Source: Paenibacillus zeirhizosphaerae (lineage in GTDB: Bacteria; Bacillota; Bacilli; Paenibacillales; Paenibacillaceae). From it: a DNA stretch of 64,000 bases. The stretch spans positions 62,001-126,000 of the forward strand of contig NZ_JAPCKK010000001.1 of assembly GCF_030705605.1 (NCBI RefSeq). The letters are read 5' to 3'. Below are positions 48,331-63,353 of this stretch, in pieces; position 1 is the stretch's first letter, and every line of letters begins with the position of its first letter. The position numbers and the translations under genes were made by a program. The notes beneath the pieces are model-generated. The model made no database searches. It was given only the letters and a program-made list of their open reading frames with translations, and had not been told where the DNA came from.

Positions 48331-49218
48331 ATGAGCAGCATAGCCAGCGGGGAACAGCTTGCCCGCAATACAAAGCTTCGGAACACTTATCAGGTGCGGT
48401 CCGTGTTATCCTGCAGCGATACAGCGATCGTTTATGGGGCCAGACTGCTGGAGACCGGGGAGAAAGTGGTCGTGAAGGAGTTTTTTCCGGCGGCGCTTGT
48501 CCGCAGGTGGCAGGACAAAAAGACAGTGATCTGCCAGGACGATGCCTTGAAATCGAAATATGTTGAACTGATGCATCAATTTTTACGCGAAGCACAGTTG
48601 ATCAAGGAACTGAAGCATTCCGGAGTTGTGCAGTATATTGATCATTTTGAAGAAAACGGCACCTGCTATTTTGTCATGGAATACTGTGCGGGCAGCTCGC
48701 TTGACGAGGTGGTCAGACAGCAGGGGCAGGGGGCGGATACAGCCTTCCTGCTCCGAACGCTTGAGCCGCTGATTGAAACACTTGAGTATATCCATCGGCA
48801 GGGCATTATTCACCGCGATATCAAACCAGCCCACATTTTGATTCATGACAGCGGCAGCGTCAAGCTGATCGGTTTCGGCTCGGCCATTCATTATAAAGGC
48901 AGGGAGAACCAGATTGCGGTCTCGGCAGGATATTCGCCGCCGGAGTTTTACGCCAACCGTTCCAGGCAGGGACCTGCATCCGATATTTACAGTCTTGCCG
49001 CAACCTTGTACTACTGCTGCAAAGGGACTCCGCCTCCTGAAGTGCCCGTGCGCTTGTTTTCGGATGAAATGGAGCCAGTCAAAAGAGGCATTTCACCACT
49101 GCCTTATGTGATCAAGCGTGGGCTCGCCGTACAATCGACGAAAAGAATCCGCTCGCTGAAATGGTTCAAAGCCGCCCTTAAAGCAGAATACGTCATTCAT
49201 TTGGGAAAGTCCCGTTAG
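48331..49218 (+). CDS. Serine/threonine kinase-like protein, probable pseudokinase
   Basis: A 295-residue cytoplasmic protein with the eukaryotic-like kinase fold and no membrane segment. The VAIK-type Lys49, helix-C Glu87 and catalytic Asp163 ('HRDIKP') are kept. Both Mg-binding residues are changed: the catalytic-loop Asn is His168 ('KPAHIL') and the DFG Asp is Gly181 ('LIGFGSA'). The glycine-rich loop is poor ('LSCSDTAIVYGA'). Each change needs one base. It probably binds rather than phosphorylates. ATG 48331 follows GGAGGGAGCATA. It stands at the head of the Tad-like locus, whose last gene carries an FHA domain. Confidence 0.85.
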   Translation: MSSIASGEQLARNTKLRNTYQVRSVLSCSDTAIVYGARLLETGEKVVVKEFFPAALVRRWQDKKTVICQDDALKSKYVELMHQFLREAQLIKELKHSGVVQYIDHFEENGTCYFVMEYCAGSSLDEVVRQQGQGADTAFLLRTLEPLIETLEYIHRQGIIHRDIKPAHILIHDSGSVKLIGFGSAIHYKGRENQIAVSAGYSPPEFYANRSRQGPASDIYSLAATLYYCCKGTPPPEVPVRLFSDEMEPVKRGISPLPYVIKRGLAVQSTKRIRSLKWFKAALKAEYVIHLGKSR

Positions 49219-49260
49219 TCAATGGACCGATGATCACCTCAAGCGGGCTGGTTTGGGGGG

Positions 49261-49289
49261 TTGACGGCATGAGCGTTTATTTTTATAAT
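49261..49289 (+). promoter_or_regulatory. Strong promoter of the Tad-like operon
   Basis: TTGACG (49261-49266), exactly 17 bp, TATAAT (49284-49289). It lies after the kinase stop and about 100 bp before the CpaB-like start, so the secretion genes can be expressed apart from the kinase. Confidence 0.75.
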
Positions 49290-49314
49290 GGAAATAATTT
49301 GAATAGCGGAACCT

Positions 49315-49361
49315 ATCGGAAGCACCGATCATCTCCTTGGGAGAATGGTCGGTGTTTTTTT
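49315..49361 (+). terminator. Leader terminator (attenuator) before the CpaB-like gene
   Basis: CACCGATCAT-CTCC pairs with GGAG-A-ATGGTCGGTG (49323-49354), followed by seven T, inside the short leader between promoter and start codon. Its left arm overlaps a competing small hairpin, ATCGG-AAGCA-CCGAT (49315-49329). All operon transcripts from the 49261 promoter must read through it, so conditional antitermination is likely. Confidence 0.7.
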
Positions 49362-49389
49362 GTTTCCGTTCCGGCAAAGGAGAGAAGAT

Positions 49390-50481
49390 ATGTCCAGATT
49401 ACGTGTGCGGCACAGGCAATTGATTTTGGCTTGTGCAGTGGGTGCCGTTGTCATGCTGATCATATGCCTGACCATCGGAGTGCTTCTGTTTAGAAATTTT
49501 GAGACGGATTATTCGCAGGAAACAGCGGAGCTGGAGCAGGAGCTTGCGGATACGAAGAAGGTTTTACAGCAGGAAATGAGGCAGATTCCTGTCGTTATTA
49601 ATGATCACAAGGCCGGGGACGCCTTGGCGGAAACAGATATCGCGCTTGTAAATATCCCTGCCGCATCTGTGCCTGAAAATATTTTGAATAAGGAGGACGT
49701 TGTCGGCAAATACACCAAGATTGCTCTTCCCAAAAACACTGCAATTACAAAATCTATGCTGTTTGAGAATGGTGTCACCCCGGATGATTTGAGAAATCAG
49801 GAGTTCAAGCTCATCCAATTGCCTGCCACTCTGGGCCCTGATCAATTTGTCGATGTCCGGATCAAATTCCCGACCGGTGAAGACTATATCGTGCTGTCCA
49901 AGAAGAAGGTAAAGGATCTGTCCAATAATCTGATCTCCTATGAGATGGATGAGCAGGAGATCCTGATGATGTCCAGTGCTGTAGTGGATGCCTATATCAA
50001 CGAGGCAACGATATATGCGCTGAGTTATGTCGATCCCTATATGCAGGATAAGGCTATCGTAACCTACCCTCCTAAGGATGAGGTGAAGAAGCTGATTCAG
50101 TCCGACCCGAACATTGTGAAAGTAGCGACAGAGCAGCTCGAATCGAGAAAAAGATCCGTTCTTGAAATGAACCTGGCGGCTATGTCCGAGGAAGATCGAA
50201 GCTCGGGTACAGGGAGCTCCAGCGAGGGCCCTCCGGTCTCAAGTAGAGCAGCAGAGAGTGACGGCACAGGGTACTCCTCACAGTTGCCTCCTGTCAAAGA
50301 TGCGCTGGCAACAGATCCGAACGCTTATGAAGAAGGTCAACAATCATCCAGTCCCACCGTCGGCCTGTCAGCAAATGGGGAAGCTGAAAGTCCGAAGCCT
50401 GTAGAGGAAGCCGAGGAAGCAGCCGCAGCGGGTGATGAAGTCATTTATGGCCAGACGCCCAAGAGCAGTGTTCAACCGTGA
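49390..50481 (+). CDS. CpaB/RcpC-like membrane protein with SAF domain
   Basis: A 363-residue single-pass protein. A membrane helix (about 11-33: 'LILACAVGAVVMLIICLTIG') is followed by a short coiled coil, a SAF-type domain (about 65-130: 'AGDALAETDIALVNIPAASVP', 'VGKYTKIALPKNTAI', 'ITKSMLF') and a low-complexity Ser/Glu/Ala-rich tail (about 265-363). CpaB/RcpC proteins are Tad pilus assembly factors; without an outer membrane the role must lie in the wall region. ATG 49390 follows AAAGGAGAGAAGAT; the frame is open upstream from 49345. Confidence 0.72.
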   Translation: MSRLRVRHRQLILACAVGAVVMLIICLTIGVLLFRNFETDYSQETAELEQELADTKKVLQQEMRQIPVVINDHKAGDALAETDIALVNIPAASVPENILNKEDVVGKYTKIALPKNTAITKSMLFENGVTPDDLRNQEFKLIQLPATLGPDQFVDVRIKFPTGEDYIVLSKKKVKDLSNNLISYEMDEQEILMMSSAVVDAYINEATIYALSYVDPYMQDKAIVTYPPKDEVKKLIQSDPNIVKVATEQLESRKRSVLEMNLAAMSEEDRSSGTGSSSEGPPVSSRAAESDGTGYSSQLPPVKDALATDPNAYEEGQQSSSPTVGLSANGEAESPKPVEEAEEAAAAGDEVIYGQTPKSSVQP

Positions 50482-50493
50482 GGAGGTGCAGGT

Positions 50494-51249
50494 GTGCAAA
50501 ACATTATGTTTATAGGTGCTTGTGATAAGGGTGGGTTGCTTCTCTGGCTCGGCAAGGTGCTGGCTTCGGCTGGAGAAAAGGTGCTGGTTATCGATGCCAC
50601 GGTGCTGCAAAAATATCAGTTCGCGATCCCAGAAATATCTGCAGGAGAGGTGCAAAGCAACAAAGTCATAGAGTTTGATGGTTTTGATGTAGCGACAGGC
50701 TTTGAACACAGCTTCAAAGAAGGGATTTCAATTCATGAGTCGCTGGAAAGCTATTTCCACAGAAACAACGAGCATTACACAAGCTATGATTATGTGTTCA
50801 TTGATGTGGATCATACGGAGGCACTAGAAGCTTCACTTCTAGCTTCGTGGGGAAGCATTAGCCGGTATGCGCTTGTCACCAACGGCGAACGGTACACGAT
50901 CCAGCGTAATGCAGAGCTACTGCAAAAACTGCTTCAGGACCAACAGAAGGACGGCTTGCAAATGGTCCGTATTCGCTATCCTGCTGCAGATCCTCCGGTT
51001 AGCGAGGCTTTTATGGAAGCCTCCATGGAGCAACTGAACGTAGTATTTCCTGACGAGCAGGATTTGGAATTGTACTACGATGAGATGGATTACATAGCGT
51101 GGGTGCGTATGCAGTATGAGAGCAGATTGAAGCTAAGAGGGTTATCGAGAAGCACGAAAAAGATACTGCTCAGCGTACTCGCGGCTATAACCGATCTGGA
51201 AAGAAGTTCGTTGAGACTAGCTTTAAAAGCGGCAGAAAGGGGCAGGTAA
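50494..51249 (+). CDS. CpaE/MinD-like protein with degenerate P-loop (first copy)
   Basis: A 251-residue protein whose start ('NIMFIGACDKGGLLLWLGKVLASAGEKVLVIDAT') follows the ParA/MinD order of beta strand, P-loop, helix and second strand. The 'GKGGVGKTT' motif has become 'ACDKGGLLLWLGK', without a GKS/T, so ATP binding is doubtful. 'YDYVFIDVDHTE' resembles the Walker B strand. Start GTG 50494 follows GAGGAGGTGCAG. It lies 12 bp after the CpaB-like gene. In Tad systems CpaE/TadZ places the machine at the membrane. Confidence 0.6.
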   Translation: MQNIMFIGACDKGGLLLWLGKVLASAGEKVLVIDATVLQKYQFAIPEISAGEVQSNKVIEFDGFDVATGFEHSFKEGISIHESLESYFHRNNEHYTSYDYVFIDVDHTEALEASLLASWGSISRYALVTNGERYTIQRNAELLQKLLQDQQKDGLQMVRIRYPAADPPVSEAFMEASMEQLNVVFPDEQDLELYYDEMDYIAWVRMQYESRLKLRGLSRSTKKILLSVLAAITDLERSSLRLALKAAERGR

Positions 51250-51251
51250 AC

Positions 51252-52091
51252 ATGTCGATTATTTCATTCTGGAGTCCGGAGCATGGGCGGGGAAACACTT
51301 CGAACAGCGCCGCGGTAGGAGCTATGATAGGGCTGGATTATGATATCCGGACGCTGATCGCACGGACTCAATTCGGGGATTCGAGTCTGGAGGGCGCTTT
51401 TCTTAAATCCAAAGAGCTGCAGTTGAGAAATTTCGCTGCCTCAACCGCATCCGGTATGGACGCACTGGAGCGGCTGTTTAAAACGAAACGGCTGGAAGCG
51501 GCGAGTATCAGCAATCATACCTTGTCGCTTGAGCCAGGTCGGCTGGATCTTTTGACCGGAACAAGCAAGTCTTATGAATCTGCCTATGAAGGTATTGAGC
51601 ATGTTATTGCAGCCATATTTGAAGAAGCTAAACGGTATTATCAAGCCATTATTTTGGATATTGAAGGCGGCAGCACCAACGCTGTGTCGAATCAGCTTTT
51701 AAAAAGCTCGGACCTGGTCGTAGTAAATCTCAGCCAGGATATCATGTCACTGGAACGCTACATCAGTAAAGAGCAGTGGCCATCCGGATTGCAGGAAACA
51801 AACAGAATGATTTTACTTGGACAATATGATCCCCACTCCAAGTACAACATGACGAATATTAGGCGGAAATTTGGAATCAAGGACCCGGTCTTTGCTCTTC
51901 CATACTGCTCCGAGTACCGGGATGCATTCAATGATAGGGATGTGCTTGGGTGGTTCCGGCGCTCCCGCAATGCCGGCCGACGCCATGGGAGTTACCCTTT
52001 CTTTCAGGAGGTCAGGAAGACTGCCAAGGAGATCCTGGCACAAATTGGGGTTAACACAGAGATCAAGCATATTGAGAGGGGAGTATCCTGA
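51252..52091 (+). CDS. CpaE/MinD-like protein with degenerate P-loop (second copy)
   Basis: A 279-residue MinD-like protein. The P-loop reads 'SPEHGRGNTSNSAAV': the order of KGGxGKTT is kept but the catalytic Lys is Asn. 'YYQAIILDIEGGSTNAVSNQLLKSSDLVVVNLSQD' corresponds to the Walker B and following strand. It begins 2 bp after the first copy and ends in a 1-bp overlap with the CpaF-like gene. The two copies are only distantly alike and may form a heterodimer. Confidence 0.6.
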   Translation: MSIISFWSPEHGRGNTSNSAAVGAMIGLDYDIRTLIARTQFGDSSLEGAFLKSKELQLRNFAASTASGMDALERLFKTKRLEAASISNHTLSLEPGRLDLLTGTSKSYESAYEGIEHVIAAIFEEAKRYYQAIILDIEGGSTNAVSNQLLKSSDLVVVNLSQDIMSLERYISKEQWPSGLQETNRMILLGQYDPHSKYNMTNIRRKFGIKDPVFALPYCSEYRDAFNDRDVLGWFRRSRNAGRRHGSYPFFQEVRKTAKEILAQIGVNTEIKHIERGVS

Positions 52092-53962
52092 TGCTTGTAG
52101 TGTGGAATGGCATCGGCATAGGAATTCTTTTGATCGTTCTTCTGTCTTACCTGATTTATAAGCTAAGGAATCCTCTCTCTGTATCGCGAGAAAAGAAAAA
52201 TGTGGAGGATCTGGAGCGGTATAGCATGAAGCAGATTAGCCGGTACATTAAAGACAAATTCAATGAAATGACAGGCGCGAATCTGTACGATCTCGCCCTG
52301 GATCTTGAGGATTTCAACCGCCAGAAGCACATGCGCACCGAGCTTAAAGCCGCGCTGAAGGGCTGCAACAGCGGTGATTTGTACGACAAAATGTACGTCA
52401 AGGATTTGATTTATGATTTGCTGCTTCGGGATTACGGTCTGGATGAGCGAAATATAAACTATGTTCTTCCCTTTGAGGAAGCGGACAAGCTCACAGCCCG
52501 GGATAAATTCGATATTTTAATGCAATTGTATAAGAAAAAGCACAACTATAAGGCGCTGCCAAGGATGATCGAGGAGTATCGTATGGATGAACTCAAAGCC
52601 GTCATCGAGGGCGGGCAGACGGAATCCTACATCATCACGGAGGATGAGATTAACAAGATTTACAGGGAGAAAGCCAGGGGTCCAGTGTCCTTTGAGGATA
52701 AGATGCAAGTCATCGTGCAGCGGATTTACCAGGGATTTAAAGGGTTTGGGGTCATAGATGAAATCCGATACATGGAAATTGACGGTGTGTCCGGCGGTGT
52801 ATCCGGTATTCCTGCCGCCATGCGGGACATTGAGGATGAAGAACAGATGCTGCAGGCCATGAGAACCCATTCCAAGCAGGATAATACCCATTCAGTATGG
52901 ATTATGTATCGAGGTAAAACCATACATTTGTCCTTCTTGTCCTTTGGCAGCGAGCTGGAGCTGAAGCGAATCTGTCAATCTATCTACAAATGGAACAATC
53001 CGGGCCAGCTAACTGAGCAGAATGGTTTTATCGTCAACGATATGAAGGATCATTCACGGATTGTTGTCATGCGTCCCCCATTTGCGGAATCATGGGTGTT
53101 TTTCAACCGGAAGTTCAACCTCACGTACACGGATCTGGAAAACTTCCTGAATCCGAAGGATCGGGGATATGCGTTTGATAATACCGAATTGCCCATTCGG
53201 TTGATTCCCTTTCTTATGAAGGGGGCAAGAGTAACTACCGTGACAGGGGACCAGGGAACCGGTAAATCAACCTTAATGATGGCTATGGCACGTTATATCG
53301 CCGGTTACTTGACGATTCGGGTGCAGGAAATGGCCTTTGAGCTGCATTTGCGGAATCTGTTTCCGCAGCGGAACATTGTGTCTATCCGGGAAACCGCGGA
53401 TATCACAGGCCAAAAAGGGATGGATATTCAAAAAAAGACGGATGGAGCGGTCAACATTATCGGCGAGGCCGCGACAGCAGAACAGGTGGCCTGGTTTTTG
53501 CAGGCGGGTACAGTTGCCAGCTTATTCACTATTTTGTCGCACCATGCGAAGACGTTCCGGGATCTCGTATTTTCTCTGCGTAATTCCACACTGCAGACGG
53601 GACTTTTCCGTAACGAATCCATTGCCGAACAGCAGGTTGTCAGTGTATTGGATTTTGATATCCATTTGTTCAAGGATGCGGAAGGACGTAGGTACATTGA
53701 ACGGATAACGGAATGTGTACCCATGATGGAGCAGGATACATATCCGCAAGAACCAGAGCAGGCAGCCATTGAGTTTTACAGGCGCATGACGGATCGTAAA
53801 ACCTTTGAGGGCAGGGATATTGTGGTCTTCCAGGACGGGGGGTATATCGCCAAGCATCCGATATCCGAGCGCCAGCAGACGGAAATGATGCGCCATATGA
53901 ATGCTAAGGACCGGACGGAGTTTGAGGAGTTGCTTGCAGTCTATTGGAAGGTGCCAGCATGA
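52091..53962 (+). CDS. CpaF/TadA-type secretion ATPase with N-terminal membrane anchor
   Basis: A 623-residue ATPase of the type II/IV secretion superfamily, powering pilus or pseudopilus assembly. Walker A 'TGDQGTGKST' has Lys392; the Walker B region is 'AVNIIGEAATAEQVAWFLQAG'; the His box is 'TILSHHAKTF'. Unlike standard soluble CpaF it starts with a membrane helix ('GIGIGILLIVLLSYLIY', about 7-23) followed by an all-helical domain of about 180 residues. ATG 52091 overlaps the previous stop by one base after GAGGGGAGTATCCTG. It overlaps the next gene by 4 bp. Confidence 0.85.
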   Translation: MLVVWNGIGIGILLIVLLSYLIYKLRNPLSVSREKKNVEDLERYSMKQISRYIKDKFNEMTGANLYDLALDLEDFNRQKHMRTELKAALKGCNSGDLYDKMYVKDLIYDLLLRDYGLDERNINYVLPFEEADKLTARDKFDILMQLYKKKHNYKALPRMIEEYRMDELKAVIEGGQTESYIITEDEINKIYREKARGPVSFEDKMQVIVQRIYQGFKGFGVIDEIRYMEIDGVSGGVSGIPAAMRDIEDEEQMLQAMRTHSKQDNTHSVWIMYRGKTIHLSFLSFGSELELKRICQSIYKWNNPGQLTEQNGFIVNDMKDHSRIVVMRPPFAESWVFFNRKFNLTYTDLENFLNPKDRGYAFDNTELPIRLIPFLMKGARVTTVTGDQGTGKSTLMMAMARYIAGYLTIRVQEMAFELHLRNLFPQRNIVSIRETADITGQKGMDIQKKTDGAVNIIGEAATAEQVAWFLQAGTVASLFTILSHHAKTFRDLVFSLRNSTLQTGLFRNESIAEQQVVSVLDFDIHLFKDAEGRRYIERITECVPMMEQDTYPQEPEQAAIEFYRRMTDRKTFEGRDIVVFQDGGYIAKHPISERQQTEMMRHMNAKDRTEFEELLAVYWKVPA

Positions 53963-56028
53963 ACAGTTGGCTGATCACAGGTTTCTCCTTCGGAATGTTC
54001 ATTCTGTTTATTATCGCTTTTGTTTTCATTGCCTTCGTGAGAAACGCGGAAGGCAGAAAGAAAAGCGATGTTTTTGAAAAGCTATTTGGGAAGAGGGCCA
54101 ATCGTCATCGCCTGAACCTGCTTTATCAGAGGTCATACGTTCAGTTTCAGCGACTTCCCTTGCTGCGGAAGTACATCTGGAAAATCCGCAAGCGGCTGGA
54201 GGTTCTGGATTCCTTCGACGAGTATGCGATACGCCGGCAGACCATGAACATTGCTTTTATTTCATTAAGCTCGACAACCATTCTGGTTCTGCTGTTCTGC
54301 CTGATTAGCCGGGACTTGCTCACGGTCTTTTTCATTCTCTTCGGTGCTGTGGTCTTGAACGGGGTGATGATCACCACCTTTGTGAACCGTGTCGAGGATC
54401 GGCTGTTGAAGCGGTCTATCACACTGTACGAGGATACAAGACATCAATTTCAGCGTACCAAGAATGTGGAGGAGGCTATTTATGAAGCCAGCCTTACTGC
54501 GCCTCATGAAGCCGCGCGGCATGGCGAGCGAATCTATGAAATCTTGACCGCCGATGATCAGCATAAGGCGTTGGACACTTATTATGAAGTGGCACCGAAC
54601 AAGTATTATAAGATGTTCACCGGATTTTCCTTTCTCGTATCTGAATTCGGGGATCGGATTGTCAGAAATTCATCTATGTATCTCAGTGCGATTACCAAGC
54701 TGATCCAGGACGTCAATTACGAAATTTTGCGAAGAGAGCGCCTGAACTATTTACTCAAGGGCTTATCGACGATTGTCGTACTTTCCGTGGTGTTTATAAA
54801 ACCGATAGAGCTATGGGCGAAAACCTATTTTCCCGTTATGAGCGATTTTTATTCGAGTAAGCTCGGTTTTTTCGTCAAAGTCTTCTTCTTTCTCGTCGTA
54901 CTGCTGTGTTATGCGTTGATCAAAAAGCTGCTGGCGAATGACGAGGCCAGGTATGTGGCGAAGACGGAGCGCGTTTTGTGGGAGAAGCTGCTGTATACCA
55001 AAATCACTCTGCTGCGCTGGGTGGTGGACCGCTTTGTACCCGCACCGCATAGAAAAGCCCACTTTCAGCTAACGGTACTCATCAAGGAAGCCAACTCCTA
55101 TCTCACGGTAGAGTGGCTGTATGTGCAGCGACTGCTTCTAAGCGGAATCATTTTGATAGGAACGGTCTCGATGTTTTTCTATATGCATTCTCTGTCCATC
55201 CATCATGTGCTCCATGATCCTTTACGGGGTACGGGAATATTCGGGAAGCTTGGCCCTGATGAGTTGGCGGCAGCGCAAAAGAATACCGATTTTGACCGCT
55301 CCGTTCTCGCAGCCATGGAAGATGCGGCAGAGGTCACCCCTTCCTCGCTGATTACGTTGGTAAGCACGTTAACACAGACCAGCAGCAATGATTCAACAAC
55401 CATTTATACGGCAAACCGAATCTATCAAAAATACGTGGAGATTCAGAATGAGTACTTCAAGTGGTGGGAGCTGCTGCTGTGTATGCTGCTGACCTGTGTA
55501 GCTTATTTTACACCTCTCTGGCTGCTGTATTTCCAGAAAAAGATCCGGTATATGGAGATGCAGGACGAGGTGGATCAGTTCCATACGATGATTTCCATCC
55601 TGGCTCAGTTTGAAAGAATGGATGTGGAAACGGTGCTTGAGTGGATGGAGAGATACAGCGTTATTTTCAAAGACCCGATAAAAAACTGTCTGAATAACTT
55701 CAGCAGCGGTCAGGAAGAAGCTCTTGAAATACTGGGTGAAGATGTGGCCTTTGAACCATTTGTCAGGATTGTTGAGAAGCTGAGGTTAGCGGTTGAGAAA
55801 ATCCCGCTGCTTCAGGCCTTTGATGATTTGGAGCTGACGAAGGAGTATTACGCCGAAAAACGCAAAGAGCACTTCAATCGGCTGATTGAGCGGAAGGCAT
55901 TCTGGGGCAGAATCTTCGGATTGGCACCATCCATGTACTTAATCTTTCTTTATCTGGTACTCCCAATGCTCTATCTCAGTATGACACAAGCTGGGGCATC
56001 GTTTGAGCAAATACAGAATGTGCAGTGA
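53959..56028 (+). CDS. TadB-TadC-like fused membrane platform protein
   Basis: A 689-residue membrane protein. Two type-II-secretion-F-like halves are visible. The first has helices near 1-25 and 90-135, a cytoplasmic helical bundle ('LYEDTRHQFQRTKNVEEAIYEA' region) and helices near 260-325. The second has helices near 385-405 and 500-525, a bundle ('QDEVDQFHTMISILAQFERMDV' region) and a final pair near 655-680. TadB and TadC are normally separate proteins of about 300 residues; here they appear joined. ATG 53959 follows GGAAGGTG and overlaps the CpaF-like stop as ATGA. Confidence 0.72.
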   Translation: MNSWLITGFSFGMFILFIIAFVFIAFVRNAEGRKKSDVFEKLFGKRANRHRLNLLYQRSYVQFQRLPLLRKYIWKIRKRLEVLDSFDEYAIRRQTMNIAFISLSSTTILVLLFCLISRDLLTVFFILFGAVVLNGVMITTFVNRVEDRLLKRSITLYEDTRHQFQRTKNVEEAIYEASLTAPHEAARHGERIYEILTADDQHKALDTYYEVAPNKYYKMFTGFSFLVSEFGDRIVRNSSMYLSAITKLIQDVNYEILRRERLNYLLKGLSTIVVLSVVFIKPIELWAKTYFPVMSDFYSSKLGFFVKVFFFLVVLLCYALIKKLLANDEARYVAKTERVLWEKLLYTKITLLRWVVDRFVPAPHRKAHFQLTVLIKEANSYLTVEWLYVQRLLLSGIILIGTVSMFFYMHSLSIHHVLHDPLRGTGIFGKLGPDELAAAQKNTDFDRSVLAAMEDAAEVTPSSLITLVSTLTQTSSNDSTTIYTANRIYQKYVEIQNEYFKWWELLLCMLLTCVAYFTPLWLLYFQKKIRYMEMQDEVDQFHTMISILAQFERMDVETVLEWMERYSVIFKDPIKNCLNNFSSGQEEALEILGEDVAFEPFVRIVEKLRLAVEKIPLLQAFDDLELTKEYYAEKRKEHFNRLIERKAFWGRIFGLAPSMYLIFLYLVLPMLYLSMTQAGASFEQIQNVQ

Positions 56029-56073
56029 TTCGATTTTTTTAAATTCTATAGTTACCAAAGGAGAGTATGAAAT

Positions 56074-56490
56074 ATGGGCACAGCAGCAAAAGCATTAGTC
56101 GGAGCGGCAGGTCTCTTTCTGGCCATCGCCCTCATCACGTTGAGTGTAACTCTGTTCGGCACGGCCCAGGAGGGAGCCAAACAAGCGCAGACTGAATTTT
56201 CCGGTATTCAGACCGAGCTGTCGGGGCAGGCGTATGCGGGTTATGACAATACCATTTTGACCGGCAGCCAGGTGGTCAACACTATTCGTAAATTCGGCAA
56301 TAAAGAAAATTTTACGATCAAGGTGTCGACGAACAAGAACAGGAGCGGAACCACCTACACCAAAGGCAGCATTGGGGGGACTACGGATGTAACATCCAAT
56401 GAGTACGTCAACCCGTCAGGTCAATTTAAAGGCTTAGTCATGCGTGACGAGAACAATGTGGTGACAGGTATTGAGTTTACGCAAAGCTAA
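56074..56490 (+). CDS. Small single-pass membrane protein, pseudopilin-like (1)
   Basis: A 138-residue protein with an N-terminal hydrophobic helix (about 7-29: 'ALVGAAGLFLAIALITLSVTLFG') and a polar extracellular part ('TGSQVVNTIRKFGNKENFTIKVST'). The layout recalls pilins, but the helix starts almost at the N-terminus with no clear prepilin-peptidase site. ATG 56074 follows AAAGGAGAGTATGAAAT. 'GSQVVNTI' has a counterpart ('GSAVMQSI') in the next protein, so the two are likely paralogues. Placed last in the assembly genes, it is a candidate for the assembled subunit. Confidence 0.6.
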   Translation: MGTAAKALVGAAGLFLAIALITLSVTLFGTAQEGAKQAQTEFSGIQTELSGQAYAGYDNTILTGSQVVNTIRKFGNKENFTIKVSTNKNRSGTTYTKGSIGGTTDVTSNEYVNPSGQFKGLVMRDENNVVTGIEFTQS

Positions 56491-56507
56491 TGGGTGAATA
56501 AACAGAT

Positions 56508-56891
56508 ATGAATATTACAGCTAAAATGCTGTTCACTGCGGCCGGCTTCCTGCTCTTCATCAGTGCGGCCGTTTCCGGGATCGGATTGTTTCGCGAAAAT
56601 CATCAGGCCCTTGGCGAGGTAAATGCTGTAATGGATAGTCGTGACCGAAATTTGGTCGTAATGCCTGTGATTGAAGAGGAAGAAAGGATCAGCGGCTCGG
56701 CTGTTATGCAGTCCATATTCCAAATCGCGGAGCTTGGGGCGGATATCCAGGTGGATGGCTATCTTTTTTCCAAAGACGTCATTATAGAAGAGACAGACGT
56801 TTCCATGATTGCTCCTCAGGCTGTATACAGCACAGCGTATCAAAGGAATGGTGATGGCGTACTGCAACGAGTGATATTTAGAAAACAATGA
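56508..56891 (+). CDS. Small single-pass membrane protein, pseudopilin-like (2)
   Basis: A 127-residue protein with an N-terminal helix (about 6-27: 'KMLFTAAGFLLFISAAVSGIGLF') and an acidic outer part. 'ISGSAVMQSIFQIAELGADIQV' parallels 'LTGSQVVNTIRKF' of the preceding protein. No clear ribosome site is close before ATG 56508, although the gene is 17 bp from the previous stop, so reinitiation is possible. Function not known. Confidence 0.55.
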   Translation: MNITAKMLFTAAGFLLFISAAVSGIGLFRENHQALGEVNAVMDSRDRNLVVMPVIEEEERISGSAVMQSIFQIAELGADIQVDGYLFSKDVIIEETDVSMIAPQAVYSTAYQRNGDGVLQRVIFRKQ

Positions 56892-56907
56892 GGGACGGAG
56901 ATTGGAA

Positions 56908-57459
56908 ATGGCCAGGTACGTGCTTTATCCATTTGCCATTATACTTGCTTGTCTGCTGCTCTATTTCTATCCTATGCAAGCGGCGTATCAGCAGCAAGAT
57001 CAAATCGCGTACAACCTTGCTTACCAAGCAACTTCCAATTTTGTGGATTCTGTCCGCAACAAAGGGTACATTACACCGGCAATGTATAACGATTTTACGA
57101 GGGAGCTTGGTACCTCTAATCTATATGATATTCAGATGGAGCATAGGGCAAAGCAGTACAATCCGGTCTATTTGGACCCGCTGGACGCCACTACCTTTAC
57201 CGGAAAAACAGATGTTTATTATGATGCCCGGTACACGAAAAGTATTTTGGCATCTCTATTCCCAGGGGGGAGCAGCTCTGATTTAGCGGAAAGTCGGCGG
57301 TATTACATGCGGGAGGGGGATTTTTTCTCTGTAACGGTGAGAAATACGAATACTACAAAGGCTTCCCTGCTGCATAACTTCCTGACCAATGATCAAACTG
57401 GAGACTCAACGCGGGTCTATATCCCTTACGGAGGGATGATACTGAATGAAGATTATTAG
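56908..57459 (+). CDS. Small single-pass membrane protein of the Tad-like locus (3)
   Basis: A 183-residue protein with an N-terminal membrane helix (about 4-24: 'YVLYPFAIILACLLLYFYP') and a periplasm-like outer domain rich in Tyr, Asp and Asn. 'AYNLAYQATSNFVDSVRNKGYIT' recalls the region after the helix in TadE/TadF-type minor pilins. I start at ATG 56908, 7 bases after GGGACGGAG; a TTG at 56902 is too close. It overlaps the next gene by 14 bp. Confidence 0.58.
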   Translation: MARYVLYPFAIILACLLLYFYPMQAAYQQQDQIAYNLAYQATSNFVDSVRNKGYITPAMYNDFTRELGTSNLYDIQMEHRAKQYNPVYLDPLDATTFTGKTDVYYDARYTKSILASLFPGGSSSDLAESRRYYMREGDFFSVTVRNTNTTKASLLHNFLTNDQTGDSTRVYIPYGGMILNEDY

Positions 57460-58426
57460 CTGGTCTCTTGTGTTTGTGATGATTGTATTTCCGCTTTTCT
57501 TTGAAAATAATCTGCGGGTGCTGGAACAGGAAAGAACGCTGGAAAAAATGGTTCTGTATGACGGGGCTGTGCGGACGGCTGTACAGGATGCTGCTTTTGC
57601 GCTTCAGTTGAACGAGAGTCAGGATATGGAGAGCAGTTATGATTTTGTGAAAAGGATACGTGCCAATAAAGAGCTGGCCGTTGAGGCTTTTTACGAGACG
57701 CTGTTTAACAATGTTGGAATCCGCGACGATGAAACCGCTCAGGGGATGCTCAAAACGTACATTCCCCTGATTGCGGTGGTTGATTACGACGGTCTTTGGG
57801 TGTACACCAACGAAACTTTCAGGAATGAAAGAGGAGAAAACGTCAATAAGCAAGTATGGAAAGCCCGAAAGCCGTTTGCTTATGTGGATGATCAGGGGAA
57901 CAGCCTCTCTTTTACGCTGGATGACTATGTGTATGTCTATGACGCAGCAGCCCAAATATGGTTTGAGGGCACAAGAGCGGACGTCTCGCTTCTTACCAGC
58001 CATCGAATAGCTTTGCTTGAAGATCAGGAGCTTTTTGAACAGGTTCGCAGAACTACGATTATATCAGTTTTGCAGGATAATCTGGCATATTATACAAATT
58101 CCTACAATGAGTATGTACGTAATCTAGGCATTACCTATACGTTTACGCTTCCGCACGTGGATCAGGAAGAATGGAATAACACCATTAACGATGTTGGGGT
58201 AATTTCCTTTATTCAAGGTGTGCCGGTTGGACTGAATCGTTATAACAGCTACGCGCTCGGCGGCAGCAGGCTGATTAAAAGTACGGAGATATTCGGTTAT
58301 TTGGAAAATGGCATCAAAGTCTATTACCGTGCCTCTGACAACTATCAAGGAGAAATCGTAGAAAAGTTCACAAGCGAGAAAGAGGCGGCTTTGGCCGGTT
58401 ACTTTCCGGGCAGCGCAATAAAATAA
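57446..58426 (+). CDS. Single-pass membrane protein of the Tad-like locus (4)
   Basis: A 326-residue protein with a short N-terminal hydrophobic segment (about 3-19: 'IISWSLVFVMIVFPLFF'), a helical stalk ('NNLRVLEQERTLEKMVLYD') and a mixed outer domain ('LIAVVDYDGLWVYTNETF', 'FTLDDYVYVYDA'). The layout resembles a large minor pilin or tip protein. It starts inside the end of the preceding gene (14 bp overlap), implying coupled, perhaps stoichiometric, synthesis. Not recognised by family. Confidence 0.58.
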   Translation: MKIISWSLVFVMIVFPLFFENNLRVLEQERTLEKMVLYDGAVRTAVQDAAFALQLNESQDMESSYDFVKRIRANKELAVEAFYETLFNNVGIRDDETAQGMLKTYIPLIAVVDYDGLWVYTNETFRNERGENVNKQVWKARKPFAYVDDQGNSLSFTLDDYVYVYDAAAQIWFEGTRADVSLLTSHRIALLEDQELFEQVRRTTIISVLQDNLAYYTNSYNEYVRNLGITYTFTLPHVDQEEWNNTINDVGVISFIQGVPVGLNRYNSYALGGSRLIKSTEIFGYLENGIKVYYRASDNYQGEIVEKFTSEKEAALAGYFPGSAIK

Positions 58427-58479
58427 TTTGACAGATTAGATTTCGAGAGACTTGCATTTATAAAGAGGGGGGAAGAGGA

Positions 58480-60114
58480 TTGTTTGGGCTACAGAGAGAT
58501 TTTGCGCTGAACGGCGGTACATTTATGATTGTCAAACAGGAGCCTGACTTTAGGGTGACCGATCTCAATCCGGTCCAGAGCGGTATGGTTACGTCAAACC
58601 GGATTCAGGGATTGTTAGGCGTTATGGTTAAAGAAGTGGATTTCCGGATCGAATTGCAGTATGACATTACCGGACAACGGATGCTGTCTCATTTATGGAA
58701 GAACGGCAATATTTCAATGAGTTTGTTTTACGAAGTAATCTACCGAATTGCAGATACACTGCATAATTGCGGACAATATATGCTCGATATAAATCGTTTC
58801 ATTTTGCATGAAGAGTATATGTTTATTTCGGAAAGCGAACGATCCCGCAGTGTCAGCCTGACATATGTGCCAGTGCGGAGAAACTTGTATGAAGGTACTG
58901 CAGGTGCACAATTGAAGCAGCTTATCATTCGAATGATAAGCTGCGTCTCTGAATTGGAAGGTGATGGTGTACAGCGGATACTCCAAGTCTGCGATGGGGA
59001 ACTGTTTAATCCCGGCAAGCTGAAAGAGGTGCTGCTTCAATATATCCATCCCGAAACCGGTACCAGGACAAAAGGGAACGTGCACAGCCATGGTGCAACG
59101 GAATCCGGCGAGGATGTAAATGCCGACCGGAAGCCGCAGGTATTGAGAGCGAGGCAGGACAACAGCTCCATTCAGGAAAAGGACTTGGATAAGCCTTCTT
59201 CCGCAGCCAATATTTTGCCAATCCGGGAGCCAGGCTCATATACGGCATTCACAACTGCCAACAAACGAGAGGAGCCTGACGACGTTAGCGAGGATGAAGA
59301 AGAAGATGGCTATGAGCCAGAAACAGCACTTTACAAATACCGTTTGTACATAGCTTTGGGTTGTTTATTGGGTGCTGCGGTAATCTGGAAATACGTGTAC
59401 CTTGAAGCTCCGAGCACCATCCGACTGTTGATCTGTGCCTTGATAACGGCAGGCATGGCCGCCCTTGCATTAATTGCGTGGCAGGGATGGAGCCTGACGG
59501 GATGGTTCAGAAGAGGACAAGACCTGGATCCGGAGGATATCCCAGATGAAGAAGCTTCGGAGCCGGCCGGTCCTCTGCGCAGGAGGTTTCGTTTTTCGTC
59601 AGAGCGGGAGGATGAGGGCCAAGAGCCATGGAGATGGTCGGTACAGGAAAAAGCACCTCAGCCTGAATATCGGCGGCTCGACGTCGAGGAGGCGAACAGG
59701 TATAACACGTTCGAGGAGGTTCATGATGTGCCCGATTCTCCACTAAGTCCGGCAACCACACTGCTTCAGGATAAACGCGTCGATATTCCGTCTTCGGTAC
59801 GCCCGGGTGCCTACTTGAGAAGGGTGGCGGGCAAGTCAGACCCGGCAGAGAATATCCCGGTCAGTTCAGGCAGCTTTATTATCGGCCGCTCTCAGGAAAT
59901 AGCCCAGTATGTAGAGGATACGGAGGGGGTATCCAGGTCACACGTCGAACTGAGCCTAAATGGAAGCGGACATAAGCATGTTTTGAAGGACTTAGCTTCT
60001 ACGAACGGTACCCGGTTAAACGGCGACCCGATGGTCCCGTATAAGGAGTATCCGCTCGATGACGGAGACACCTTTGAACTTGCTGGCGTGGCTTATACTT
60101 ATTACGCAGCCTGA
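58480..60114 (+). CDS. Membrane FHA-domain protein (DUF6382-like N-terminus)
   Basis: A 544-residue protein. Residues 1-190 form a conserved-looking soluble domain ('FMIVKQEPDFRVTDLNPVQ' region) like DUF6382. A Glu/Asp-rich linker leads to two membrane helices (about 288-345: 'LYIALGCLLGAAVIWKYVYL', 'LLICALITAGMAALALIAW'), a second charged linker, and a C-terminal FHA domain (about 445-544) with 'FIIGRS', 'VSRSHVEL' and 'STNGTRLNG', the phosphothreonine-binding signature. Start is TTG 58480 after GGGGGGAAGAGGA; ATG 58528 is an alternative. It closes the Tad-like locus. Confidence 0.82.
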   Translation: MFGLQRDFALNGGTFMIVKQEPDFRVTDLNPVQSGMVTSNRIQGLLGVMVKEVDFRIELQYDITGQRMLSHLWKNGNISMSLFYEVIYRIADTLHNCGQYMLDINRFILHEEYMFISESERSRSVSLTYVPVRRNLYEGTAGAQLKQLIIRMISCVSELEGDGVQRILQVCDGELFNPGKLKEVLLQYIHPETGTRTKGNVHSHGATESGEDVNADRKPQVLRARQDNSSIQEKDLDKPSSAANILPIREPGSYTAFTTANKREEPDDVSEDEEEDGYEPETALYKYRLYIALGCLLGAAVIWKYVYLEAPSTIRLLICALITAGMAALALIAWQGWSLTGWFRRGQDLDPEDIPDEEASEPAGPLRRRFRFSSEREDEGQEPWRWSVQEKAPQPEYRRLDVEEANRYNTFEEVHDVPDSPLSPATTLLQDKRVDIPSSVRPGAYLRRVAGKSDPAENIPVSSGSFIIGRSQEIAQYVEDTEGVSRSHVELSLNGSGHKHVLKDLASTNGTRLNGDPMVPYKEYPLDDGDTFELAGVAYTYYAA

Positions 60115-60150: not shown

Positions 60151-61065
60151 TTAGTCCGACTGTTCCTTGGCATACAGGTCCTCAAGAGCTTGCTTCAAAT
60201 CTGGAAATAGGAATGTGAAGCCGTGATCCAGCAGCTTTTTGGGGACCACCCTTTGGCCTTGCAGCACGATGATACTCATTTCACCGAGCGCCGCTCTAAT
60301 CAGAAGGGAAGGTACAGAAAACCAATGGGGGCGACGATACACGGAGGCAATCGTTCTGCCAAATTCGTCATTGGTTACGGGAGTTGGGGCAGATGAATTC
60401 ACTGCACCGGATATGGATTTGTCGTGGAGACAATGATCCACAATCCTGACCATATCGGCTATATGAATCCAGGTGGTCCACTGCCGTCCGCTGCCGATCC
60501 GGCCCCCGAATCCCAGGCGATAAGGCAGCTTTAATAGAGGAAGTGCCCCTTTTTCATGTCCAAGCACCATGCTGATCCGCAGCTTTACAAGTCTGACTCC
60601 TATTCCTTGGAAGGCTTCCGCTGCGGCTTCCCACTGTTCAGTAACCCTTGACGGAAAGTCTGTGGGCCTGTTCGGGCTGGATTCATCAAATTCCTCCGTT
60701 TCGGATGTTCCGTAAATCGACATGGCTGAAGCCTGAATAATGACCTCGGGCTTCTTGTCGAGCTGCTCGATAGCCTTGGCCAATGCCGCGATGCTGCCGA
60801 CTCTCGACTGAATAATCCGGTGTTTGGCGCTTTTCGTCCAGAGCTGGTTCAGACTCTCTCCGGACAGGTTGACGATCGCATTCACTCCTCCAATCCGTTG
60901 CGGATTAAGCTCTAGCTCATCCCAGCTTATGTACTGAAGCTGATGTCCTAAGGTGCGCTCCGGTCGCCGCCGTGTCACAATTATAATTTCATGACCCGCC
61001 TCCAACCAGTGCTCGATCAGCGCACTTCCAATAAATCCGGTACCTCCGCAGACAGCAATTTTTAT
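60151..61065 (-). CDS. TIGR01777-family NAD-dependent epimerase-like protein with apparent ATA start
   Basis: An extended short-chain dehydrogenase-like protein of about 304 residues, related to YfhF/SulA-type proteins ('RLVKLRISMVLGHEKGALP', 'GSGRQWTTWIHIADMVRI', 'GAVNSSAPTPVTNDEFG'). The Rossmann motif 'IKIAVCGGTGFIGSALIEHW' lies upstream of the first standard start (TTG 61005, which would delete it). Between the in-frame TGA and this motif the only candidate codons are ATC, ATC and ATA (61065). ATA is 9 bases after AGGGAG, a proper spacing. Either AUA initiates, or a base differs from an original ATG. The function of the family is unclear. Confidence 0.78.
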   Translation of the reverse strand: MKIAVCGGTGFIGSALIEHWLEAGHEIIIVTRRRPERTLGHQLQYISWDELELNPQRIGGVNAIVNLSGESLNQLWTKSAKHRIIQSRVGSIAALAKAIEQLDKKPEVIIQASAMSIYGTSETEEFDESSPNRPTDFPSRVTEQWEAAAEAFQGIGVRLVKLRISMVLGHEKGALPLLKLPYRLGFGGRIGSGRQWTTWIHIADMVRIVDHCLHDKSISGAVNSSAPTPVTNDEFGRTIASVYRRPHWFSVPSLLIRAALGEMSIIVLQGQRVVPKKLLDHGFTFLFPDLKQALEDLYAKEQSD

Positions 61066-61303
61066 GGTGATGATCTCCCTTCAGACCAGCCTCCGATATC
61101 GACGTATCGGTCAGGTTATATTTTCCAATTTATTTCTCCTACTATGTAAGAATATAACTTGTTTTTAGCGCCCGGACAAATCTTACTGGAGTGCTCTTCC
61201 TGGTTCTGTTTTCCAAAAACGGTTGGCCGTCATGTTCATCGTTGTTAGATTTTCATAATCACGTTAAAATAAGGAGATATTCGAAGGTAAGGGGGGAAGA
61301 AAG

Positions 61304-62431
61304 ATGCTGAAGATTGGTTCTCACGTATCTTTTTCTGACAAGGGATTGTTAAGCGCGACCAAAGAGGCATCACTCTACGGTTCCAGTTCGTTCATGATAT
61401 ATACAGGTGCACCGCAGAATACGCGCCGCAAGCCGATGGAATCCATGTATCTGGATGAAGGGAAGCAGTTGATGAAAGAGCTGGGCATGGAAGAGATTGT
61501 TGTTCACGCCCCATATATTATCAATCTGGGTTCTTACAAAGAAAATACGTACGAGCTTGCTGTGAGCTTTTTGCAGGAAGAAATCCGTAGAACCCATGCA
61601 ATCGGAGTCCGGAATATTGTACTTCACCCGGGGGCCTACACGGATAAAGATCCGGAATACGGCATCAACCGGATTGCGGAAGGTCTAAATGAAGTTCTGA
61701 ACGGAGTCAAAGAGACCGACGTCAACATTGCACTTGAAACGATGGCCGGTAAAGGTACGGAAATAGGCCGCAGCTTCGAAGAGCTCGCCGCCATTATGGA
61801 CAAGGTGGAGTATAATGAACGCCTGACCGTATGCATGGACACCTGTCATATTCATGATGCGGGTTATGACATCGTTAACAATCTGGATGGTGTCCTTGAA
61901 GAGTTTGATAGAATTGTCGGTCTGGATCGCATCGCGGTGGTTCACCTGAACGACAGTAAAAATCCCGCAGCAGCCGGAAAGGACCGCCATGCCCCGATCG
62001 GATCGGGATGGATCGGCTTTGAGACTATCCGCAATGTGGTTCATCATGATGCGCTCAAAGGCCGCCCTTTTATTCTTGAGACACCTTGGATTGGTAAAGA
62101 CGCCAAAACGCAGCGCCCGATGTATGAGGCCGAAATAGCGCTTCTGCGCGGAGATGTTGCAGAGCGCTTTGGTCAGGATTTTATGAACCAGATTGAAGAT
62201 CTGCATTCTTTTTTTAGCAAGCAGGACGTGGACTCGCGTCAGTTTGTGCTTGATACCTGGACTCTGCTAAAGAACGATGCGAAAGCCAAAAAAGCAGACC
62301 CTCGTGAACCGCTCGAGCGTTTGTATGATCAAGTTGCTGAAGCTGGTCTCTTTACCGAGTTGACAGAAGAGCAGATTAATCATCGACTGATTGCCTGGTT
62401 AGCCGGCAAACAGTTGCTGGTGAATGCATAA
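61304..62431 (+). CDS. nfo: Endonuclease IV (deoxyribonuclease IV) with C-terminal extension
   Basis: Repairs abasic sites in DNA by cutting 5' to the lesion with a three-zinc centre. The TIM-barrel signatures are present: 'KIGSHVSFS', '[10 protein letters not shown]', 'LHPGAY', '[13 protein letters not shown]', '[13 protein letters not shown]', 'VVHLNDSK', '[11 protein letters not shown]' and 'ILETPW'. The usual enzyme ends near residue 285; this one continues for about 85 helical residues ('[20 protein letters not shown]' region) to 375. ATG 61304 follows AAGGGGGGAAGAAAG. The preceding 61066-61303 gap shows no gene. Confidence 0.92.
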
Positions 62432-62456
62432 GAAGTTTAGGAGGGTCTACAGAAAG

Positions 62457-63353
62457 ATGGAAGTCCACGTAAATCAACATCGAGTCAATGCACACACTGT
62501 GCATGCGGACCGCGCACGTATGCTGATATCCTGTCCGGATGGTCCGGGGATCGTGGCGGCCGTTTCCCGTTTCCTTCATGAACATGGGGCTAATATCGTG
62601 CAATCGGATCAATACACTATGGACCCGGAAGGCGGCATGTTCTTCATGCGTGTTGAATTCGACCTGCCGCAGTTGGAAGCATCCCTGCCCAAGCTGGAGC
62701 AGGATTTCAGCACGGTCGCGGAGCAGTTCCGTATGGAGTGGCGCATCTCCAGTGTCAGCCGGAAAAAGAAGCTTGCGATCTTTGTATCCAAGGAAGATCA
62801 TTGTCTGGTTGAACTGATTTGGCAATGGCAAGCGGGAGATCTGGATGCCGACATCGCCATGATAGTAAGCAATCACCCGGATATGAAGGAGTATGTGGAG
62901 TCTTTCGGTATCCCTTACCATCATATTCCTGTTACTCAGGATATGAAGCCTGAAGCCGAGCGCCGCCAGCTTGAAGTGATTGGCAGCGATATTGACGTCA
63001 TTATCCTTGCACGGTATATGCAGATTATTTCACCGAAGTTTATCGAGCATTACAGGAACCGGATCATTAACATCCACCATTCCTTCCTTCCTGCATTTGT
63101 AGGGGGCAAGCCTTACGCTCAGGCATATAACCGCGGGGTGAAAATTATTGGGGCCACCGCGCATTATGTAACTGAGGAGCTTGACGGGGGACCTATTATC
63201 GAGCAAGACGTTCAGCGTGTCAGCCATCGGGACGATGTCACTGAATTGAAGCGCATAGGCCGCACGATTGAGCGTGTTGTTTTGGCCCGTGCGGTGAAAT
63301 GGCACGTCGAAGACCGGATTTTGGTACACGAAAATAAAACCGTAGTATTTTAG
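62457..63353 (+). CDS. purU: Formyltetrahydrofolate deformylase
   Basis: Hydrolyses 10-formyl-tetrahydrofolate to formate and tetrahydrofolate, balancing the one-carbon pool fed by the glycine cleavage genes in this window. An N-terminal ACT domain (about 20-100: 'LISCPDGPGIVAAVSRFLHEHG') is followed by a formyltransferase domain with the Asn-His-Asp triad in 'IINIHHSFLPAF' and 'THYVTEELDGGPII'-like 'AHYVTEELDGGPI'. 298 residues from ATG 62457, 11 bases after AGGAGGG. It begins 25 bp after nfo, so probably shares its transcript. Confidence 0.94.
   Translation: MEVHVNQHRVNAHTVHADRARMLISCPDGPGIVAAVSRFLHEHGANIVQSDQYTMDPEGGMFFMRVEFDLPQLEASLPKLEQDFSTVAEQFRMEWRISSVSRKKKLAIFVSKEDHCLVELIWQWQAGDLDADIAMIVSNHPDMKEYVESFGIPYHHIPVTQDMKPEAERRQLEVIGSDIDVIILARYMQIISPKFIEHYRNRIINIHHSFLPAFVGGKPYAQAYNRGVKIIGATAHYVTEELDGGPIIEQDVQRVSHRDDVTELKRIGRTIERVVLARAVKWHVEDRILVHENKTVVF

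What the first reader, a model, noticed from the sequence alone, without database searches (positions are those of the whole stretch)
48331..60114. Divergent Tad/Flp-type locus built around kinase-like and FHA proteins
In one direction lie a kinase-like protein, SAF/CpaB-like protein, two CpaE-like proteins, CpaF-type ATPase, fused TadB-TadC-like platform, four small single-pass proteins and a membrane FHA protein. Known Tad families explain the core, but the locus lacks prepilin peptidase, a classical Flp pilin, secretin and PP2C phosphatase. Genes from 50.5 to 58.4 kb are tightly packed, many overlapping by 1-14 bp. I infer an envelope filament or secretion device controlled by pThr-type recognition, not a copied Caulobacter-like pilus.
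Basis: partly seen in the sequence, partly recalled or inferred. Interest (0 to 1): 0.72.

Follow-up and report, generated by a model that had tools for sequence, protein, structure and literature searches.

The report
Tad-like envelope machine, rearranged gene block
A conserved set of nine genes resembling a pilus-building machine, but without the usual pilin and its processing enzyme, sits here beside a signalling gene that in related bacteria belongs to a second, ordinary pilus locus.

Summary
The core (cpaB-E1-E2-F-BC-s1-s2-s3-s4, 49345-58426) is a conserved unit: cpaB-E1-E2-F-BC stands in order in 86 of 93 de-duplicated loci from Bacillota. F is a CpaF-type ATPase. No Flp or TadV label occurs in the 86 stretches scored for it, and prepilin-type leaders are nearly absent from s1-s4 (s1: 0 of 137). 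In 19 of 49 genomes carrying the unit no canonical Tad CpaF was found, so it looks like a machine of its own.

DUF6382-FHA is the 3' gene of the ordinary Tad locus in relatives (5 of 5 fetched). The SLH+giant genes that follow s4 in its nearest relatives now follow TadV on another contig, behind a remnant of s4. The window kinase is a stand-alone gene that lost catalytic residues; the locus-type kinase survives on a third contig. Flp, TadV and canonical Tad exist elsewhere in this genome.

Best reading: a Tad-derived, leaderless-subunit envelope machine with exchangeable 3' modules. Gram-positive tad-like loci without prepilins were described in 2011 (PMC3244431).

The parts
48331..49218 (+). 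Kinase-like protein, 295 aa; HRDIKPAH and GFG in place of HRDxKPxN and DFG; probably inactive; not part of the conserved unit
   Evidence: PF00069 9.6e-36; motifs; orthologues elsewhere in relatives
49261..49289 (+). Promoter-like site TTGACG-17-TATAAT between kinase and cpaB (consensus match only)
   Evidence: 16 sites found in the region against 16.5 expected, so weak
49345..50481 (+). CpaB/RcpC-like SAF protein (cpaB)
   Evidence: PF08666 8.3e-6; TIGR03177 1.3e-5, below cut-off
50494..51249 (+). E1, CpaE/TadZ-like without Walker A lysine
   Evidence: hhalign 77% to canonical CpaE; motif G[GSAT]xGK[ST] in 0 of 90 members
51252..52091 (+). E2, CpaE/TadZ-like without Walker A lysine
   Evidence: hhalign 92% to canonical CpaE; motif G[GSAT]xGK[ST] in 0 of 93 members
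52091..53962 (+). F, CpaF-type ATPase, P-loop GDQGTGKS and the GEA glutamate present
53944..56028 (+). BC, membrane protein with eight membrane segments in the place of TadB+TadC (start uncertain)
   Evidence: homology inconclusive
56074..56490 (+). s1, leaderless pilin-like candidate: 51-residue N-terminal helix plus small alpha-beta head; multicopy in Clostridia
56508..56891 (+). s2, paralogue of s1
   Evidence: hhalign 97.7% to s1
56902..57459 (+). s3, small single-pass protein
   Evidence: label present in 88 of 93 loci
57446..58426 (+). s4, single-pass protein, 57-residue N-terminal helix plus head
   Evidence: label present in 86 of 93 loci
58325..58409 (+). 3' part of s4 that has a 76%-identical remnant on C30 (L002:4566-4649, -) between tadV and the SLH gene
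58480..60114 (+). DUF6382-TM-FHA protein; in relatives the 3' gene of the canonical Tad locus
60151..63353 (.). Epimerase-like (-), AP-endonuclease-like (+), formyltransferase with ACT domain, PurU-like (+): syntenic with the right flank of the canonical Tad site in relatives
   Evidence: Pfam; synteny

Best explanation
The core 49345-58426 is a Tad-derived envelope machine of Bacillota, not a Tad pilus proper. Inferred working: the CpaF-type hexamer (F), placed by two non-canonical TadZ-like proteins (E1, E2), drives the membrane platform BC; BC pushes s1 and s2, which have no recognisable prepilin leader and keep a long N-terminal helix, out of the membrane into a short wall-spanning filament or piston, with s3 and s4 as minor or cap parts and the SAF protein as a wall-side guide. 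In different lineages the unit is followed by different 3' modules: an S-layer-type (SLH) protein plus a giant DUF5704 surface protein, or a type VII ATPase plus WXG100 protein, or neither. Shown by computation: conserved unit, CpaF homology, absence of local Flp/TadV, lack of leaders, absence of canonical CpaF in many carriers, change of module. Also shown: in this genome the core stands next to DUF6382-FHA and the unit's SLH+giant module stands behind TadV. Inferred: filament or piston function, order of assembly, any FHA control.
For: Order in 86 of 93 loci. F to CpaF: solved CpaF E 2e-14. Leader motif: Flp 5 of 5, TadE-like 4 of 5 and 5 of 6, TadG-like 0 of 6, against s1 0 of 137, s2 1 of 76, s3 1 of 92, s4 4 of 91. 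Models of s1 and s4: long N-terminal helix plus head, mean pLDDT 78 and 81. 19 of 49 genomes with the unit have no hit better than 1e-30 to canonical CpaF. 3' modules in the 86 loci with s4: giant 36, EssC 7, SLH only 2, FHA 1, none or unlabelled 40. Rearrangement: the F tree puts the window with L004, L108 and L110, all with a giant gene, at SH-aLRT 100; the giant tree puts the C30 giant with L004 and L108 at 100/100 and with L110 at 99/99; flanks match; s4 remnant.
Against: No PDB fold match for s1 or s4, so 'pilin-like' is architecture only. BC homology to TadB/TadC unproven. An A24 peptidase is present in 48 of 49 genomes, so processing in trans is not excluded. 18 of the 19 genomes without canonical CpaF are metagenome bins of untold completeness (titles). 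Of the 40 'none or unlabelled' loci, 21 have under 5 kb of stretch after s4, so absence of a module is testable in 19 only. In 23 of 93 loci a canonical-type CpaE label precedes cpaB, so some versions carry a more ordinary TadZ. No experiment of any kind.
Confidence: 0.55

Rival explanations
1. It is an ordinary Tad pilus in disguise: s1/s2 are very divergent prepilins processed in trans by TadV of the canonical locus (C30), as suggested for MSH pili whose loci lack a peptidase.
For: TadV and Flp exist in the genome; A24 peptidase in 48 of 49 genomes with the unit; MSH precedent seen as a passage of PMC6668835.
Against: Leader motif in 0 of 137 s1; the conserved start of s1 lies only a few residues before the membrane helix (median start of the first hydrophobic stretch at residue 3); 19 of 49 genomes have no canonical CpaF found.
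Confidence: 0.2
2. It is an accessory of protein secretion (type VII or S-layer giant protein) rather than a filament: F/BC power a transporter and s1-s4 form a static wall conduit.
For: EssC follows s4 in 7 of 86 loci (WXG100 label next in 6 of the 7), SLH and/or giant in 38 of 86; T7SSg next to Tad genes in PMC11217815 (passages).
Against: 40 of 86 loci carry neither label, 19 of them with at least 5 kb of sequence after s4; the EssC label needs only one or two changes in the F tree, so that link is lineage-bound; here the T7SS (C11) is not adjacent.
Confidence: 0.2
3. A phosphothreonine-controlled device centred on kinase and FHA.
For: FHA keeps GR, SRSH and TNGT; an active-looking locus-type kinase is on C31; an active-looking kinase stands near cpaB in 27 of 93 loci.
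Against: FHA next to the unit occurs only here among the 86 loci with s4 and, by eye, only here in the genus lists; window kinase lacks Asn and DFG Asp; in 65 of 93 loci no active-looking kinase was found near cpaB (1 more had no cpaB label).
Confidence: 0.05

Closest known systems
Tad/Flp pilus (CpaF/TadA, CpaE/TadZ, TadB, TadC, CpaB/RcpC, Flp, TadV)
   Same: CpaF-type ATPase, two CpaE-like proteins, SAF/CpaB protein, membrane protein in the platform's place
   Different: No Flp or TadV in the locus, prepilin leaders nearly absent, platform unrecognisable by profile, E1/E2 without Walker A lysine; s1-s4 show no profile match to Flp/TadE/TadG
Gram-positive tad-like loci without prepilin signals ('no Flp' groups, Imam et al. 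2011, PMC3244431; section 12 and passages seen)
   Same: tad homologues distant from other tad genes, and no protein with a prepilin signal
   Different: Those loci are said to contain tadV; no TadV here. Whether they are the same family was not tested
T7SSg with adjacent Tad genes (PMC11217815, passages seen)
   Same: 7 of 86 relatives carry an EssC-type ATPase directly after s4
   Different: Window has no T7SS genes next to it; the paper speaks of a full set of Tad pilus genes as neighbours and leaves a link open
Archaeal two-domain platform from which TadB and TadC are thought to derive (PMC6668835, passages seen)
   Same: One platform gene instead of TadB plus TadC
   Different: Fusion here inferred from size and membrane segments only

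Membership tests
Tad/Flp pilus | CpaF/TadA-type ATPase | tested here: met
   (solved CpaF E 2e-14); Pfam T2SSE (E <= 0.01) in 15 of 28 members, not in the window copy
Tad/Flp pilus | TadZ/CpaE homologue | tested here: met
   hhalign 77% (E1) and 92% (E2) to canonical CpaE. Walker A motif G[GSAT]xGK[ST] 0 of 90 and 0 of 93, canonical 6 of 6; a looser GxxxxGK[ST] anywhere rings in 1 of 93 E1 and 4 of 96 E2, but in only 1 of 6 canonical CpaE
Tad/Flp pilus | TadB and TadC platform (T2SSF) | tested here: inconclusive
   T2SSF not among the 25 of 43 families shown for 22 members, no PDB hit, weak profile match
Tad/Flp pilus | CpaB/RcpC SAF protein | tested here: met
   PF08666 8.3e-6, over cut-off; TIGR03177 below cut-off
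Tad/Flp pilus | Flp pilin with class III leader in the locus | tested here: not met
   no Flp or TadV label in 86 of 86 scored stretches (labels from profiles of 5-6 canonical loci); s1 leader 0 of 137
Tad/Flp pilus | Prepilin peptidase TadV in the locus | tested here: not met
   the only A24 peptidase found in the genome is on C30
Tad/Flp pilus | TadE/TadF pseudopilins with leader | tested here: not met
   leader motif s3 1 of 92, s4 4 of 91; no profile match to tE1, tE2, tG
Tad/Flp pilus | Surface filament | not testable with these tools
   needs microscopy
T7SSg | EssC ATPase plus WXG100 next to the Tad genes | tested here: not met
   not beside the unit here; T7SS genes of this genome are on C11; EssC met in 7 of 86 relatives
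Active Ser/Thr kinase (window copy) | HRDxKPxN and DFG | tested here: not met
   HRDIKPAH and GFG; four of four fetched orthologues keep Asn and DFG
FHA phosphothreonine binder | GR, SxxH, NG motifs (recalled) | tested here: met
   GRSQ, SRSHVE, TNGTRLNG; binding itself not testable

The most novel reading that the evidence does not exclude
A prepilin-peptidase-independent branch of the type IV filament superfamily in monoderm bacteria: unprocessed, leaderless helix-plus-head subunits (s1, s2) are pushed by a CpaF/fused-platform motor into a wall-spanning piston that serves exchangeable export modules (S-layer giant protein or type VII secretion).
Probability: 0.3. Interest if true: 0.8.

Novelty: new variant of a known kind. 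Interest (0 to 1): 0.5.

Why it matters
If the subunits are used unprocessed, this would be a case against the rule that type IV filaments need a prepilin peptidase, in a family with 2128 database relatives of F (E <= 1e-3 among 7996 scored candidates), many of which bear the plain name 'pilus assembly protein CpaF'. The change of the 3' module (surface protein or type VII genes) makes it testable whether a Tad-type motor serves export through the thick wall. The rearranged locus here warns against reading function from gene neighbourhood in one genome.

Tried and rejected
Rejected: kinase plus FHA as the centre of the system. Rejected: absence of peptidase in carriers as proof of independence from processing; A24 peptidase was found in 48 of 49 genomes. 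Rejected: misassembly as cause of the FHA/SLH swap; the three junctions (C29, C30, C31) lie inside contigs (that on C30 about 4.5 kb from its end), the s4 remnant is only 76% identical to the window s4, and the flanks fit. Not settled: the exact sequence of breaks. A circular excision and re-insertion would explain s4-FHA and tadV-s4'-SLH, but cpaB and the giant gene are not contiguous here (the giant gene stands at the end of C30), and in P. massiliensis no match to the ABC-F-type gene was found in the roughly 18 kb after the giant gene. The window's left flank (DUF1349, anchor and BamB-like genes) matched none of the fetched relatives' loci. Not settled: whether nearer relatives (F 84-90% identical, for example P. 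terreus) share the swap; no context was available.

The 80 loci are the best of 532 relatives, and that list itself was cut. Loci are not independent: many are near relatives (L004 and L108 are almost identical). The 47 genomes are those of 75 whose canonical CpaF is printed, a cut list. Searches cover 49 genomes out of the 80 loci (50 loci given, L046 not held). In L050 the giant gene lies between s1 and s2, not after s4, and was scored 'none'. The CpaE/ParA-like tail of the locus-type kinase is my reading of the sequence; Pfam found only the kinase part.
Full report
What is there. The eleven genes lie at the coordinates given, all on the + strand, from 48331 to 60114. Between cpaB and s4 the gaps run from -14 (or -19, depending on the start of BC) to 45 bp. 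Families: protein kinase (first gene), SAF/CpaB (second), DUF6382 plus FHA (last); the genes between have no Pfam or NCBIfam hit over a cut-off. The genome (G000, 4.8 Mb, 34 contigs) has the window on contig C29 at 62001-126000.

The core is a conserved unit. I searched F against public proteins (2128 relatives among 7996 scored), aligned 28, fetched 80 loci from Paenibacillaceae, Tumebacillus and Clostridia and 15 more from genus relatives. With the window and after dropping three duplicate contigs, 93 loci remain: cpaB-E1-E2-F-BC in this order in 86, all nine labels in 69, and no Flp or TadV label among the 86 with s4 in the stretch. In most Clostridia bins s1 is present in several tandem copies, up to five. 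In 23 of 93 a canonical-type CpaE label also precedes cpaB.

What the parts are. F is a CpaF-type ATPase: its profile finds solved CpaF chains at E 2e-14 and matches the canonical CpaF profile at 99.3%; P-loop and the catalytic glutamate are conserved. E1 and E2 match canonical CpaE at 77% and 92%, but none of 90 and 93 members has the Walker A motif G[GSAT]xGK[ST], against 6 of 6 canonical CpaE. BC has eight membrane segments and stands where TadB and TadC stand, yet homology is unproven. s1 and s2 are paralogues (97.7%). None of s1-s4 matches the Flp, TadE or TadG profiles. AlphaFold2 gives s1 a 51-residue N-terminal helix and a small alpha-beta head (mean pLDDT 78) and s4 a 57-residue helix and a head (81); neither has a convincing PDB match.

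Leaders. A simple class III leader test (G/A/S, then D/E at +5 within a hydrophobic stretch, with a basic residue before) rings in 5 of 5 Flp, 4 of 5 and 5 of 6 TadE-like and 0 of 6 TadG-like proteins of canonical loci; in the divergent loci it rings in 0 of 137 s1, 1 of 76 s2, 1 of 92 s3 and 4 of 91 s4. So the locus lacks not only a peptidase but also recognisable substrates for one.

The rest of the genome. The only A24 peptidase found is on C30, inside a canonical Tad locus with CpaE, CpaF, TadB, TadC, a Flp pilin (GLGTLEMILIIAILIAVAI), TadE- and TadG-like genes and TadV. A type VII cluster (EssC-type ATPase, WXG100, and by my reading kinase, vWA and PPM proteins, as in the T7SSc of PMC11217815, passages) is on C11 and not adjacent. 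Only one divergent F was found in this genome.

Independence. Of 49 genomes with the unit, 30 have canonical CpaF (E < 1e-100) and 19 have no hit better than 1e-30 (18 Clostridia bins and Tumebacillus lacus). In 18 of those 19 an A24 peptidase is still found. So the unit seems not to need canonical Tad, while processing in trans cannot be excluded; the bins may be incomplete.

Three-prime modules. After s4 stand, within four genes, a giant DUF5704/Ig-like protein (with an SLH label before it in some) in 36 of 86 loci, an EssC-type ATPase in 7 (WXG100 label next in 6), an SLH protein only in 2, FHA in 1 (this window), and nothing labelled in 40 (families of examples). Of the 40, 21 have under 5 kb of sequence after s4, so only 19 are a real test. 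In the F tree the EssC label needs two changes, of which starred branches force one.

The swap. In 5 of 5 canonical Tad loci from relatives the order ends tE2-tV-FHA, and in the genus lists DUF6382 lies 7.1-7.7 kb from canonical CpaF in 46 of the 47 genomes where both are printed; this genome is the exception. Here the canonical locus reads tV-(s4 remnant)-SLH-giant: 85 bp at 76% identity to the 3' end of the window's s4 lie between tadV and the SLH gene. The window's right flank (epimerase-like, AP-endonuclease-like, PurU-like; 47-89% identical) is the right flank of the canonical site in relatives, and the left flank of canonical CpaE is still on C30. F of the window falls with L004, L108 and L110 (SH-aLRT 100); L004 and L108 have SLH+giant after s4, L110 an unlabelled 313-residue gene and giant. 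The C30 giant falls with L004 and L108 at 100/100 and with L110 at 99/99. So the SLH+giant module is the unit's own, inherited vertically but moved.

The kinase. In 27 of 93 loci an active-looking kinase stands near cpaB; 20 have a gene with the kin label but without the motifs, 45 none, 1 no cpaB label. In L004 it is 517 aa with a C-terminal part that I read as CpaE/ParA-like (Pfam sees only the kinase). Its orthologue in this genome (52% identical, HRDLKPSN and DFG intact) is on C31, between an FtsJ-like methyltransferase gene and an ABC-F-type gene, where relatives such as L053 and L115 have the whole unit; here only the kinase is left. The kinase in the window is another gene: orthologues lie away from F in 6 of 6 relatives (by eye), and the four fetched keep Asn and DFG, which the window copy has lost.

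Reading. Anatomy and history are well supported. Function is inferred: a Tad-derived motor that assembles leaderless helix-plus-head subunits across the wall and that lineages have paired with different surface or secretion modules. Imam et al. 2011 (PMC3244431, section 12 and passages seen) described Gram-positive tad-like loci without any prepilin signal, though with tadV; PMC11217815 (passages) noted Tad genes beside T7SSg; PMC6668835 (passages) noted MSH loci without a peptidase and TadZ with an atypical Walker A. Paenibacillus sp. NAIST15-1 was reported with Flp/Tad genes at two loci (PMC5072692, one passage). Hence 'new variant of a known kind'.

Noticed in passing
L009 (record title: P. 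alvei plasmid pPAV109): A close relative of the unit with a giant gene lies on a plasmid, so the unit can be carried on mobile DNA.
   Followed up: no
L034, L035, L038, L039, L048: F nearly identical across Cohnella and several Paenibacillus species (end branches about 0.004-0.013), suggesting recent transfer.
   Followed up: no
L098 (own contig C11:408001-428000): T7SSc-like cluster: YukD-like, EssC-type 1330 aa, 276 aa, WXG100 proteins, kinase-like 657 aa, vWA-like, PPM-like (the last three by my reading).
   Followed up: partly
L129 (own contig C31), 13817-17019: Orphan locus-type kinase left before an ABC-F-type gene where relatives carry the whole unit.
   Followed up: yes
L058, L062, L064-L071, L082: Tandem s1 copies in Clostridia bins, as might be expected for subunits of a filament.
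   Followed up: partly
L050, between s1 and s2: The giant gene stands inside the unit instead of after s4.
   Followed up: no
genome G125, contigs C10 and C47: Several proteins of 591-749 aa with parts resembling the window kinase, clustered on two contigs.
   Followed up: no
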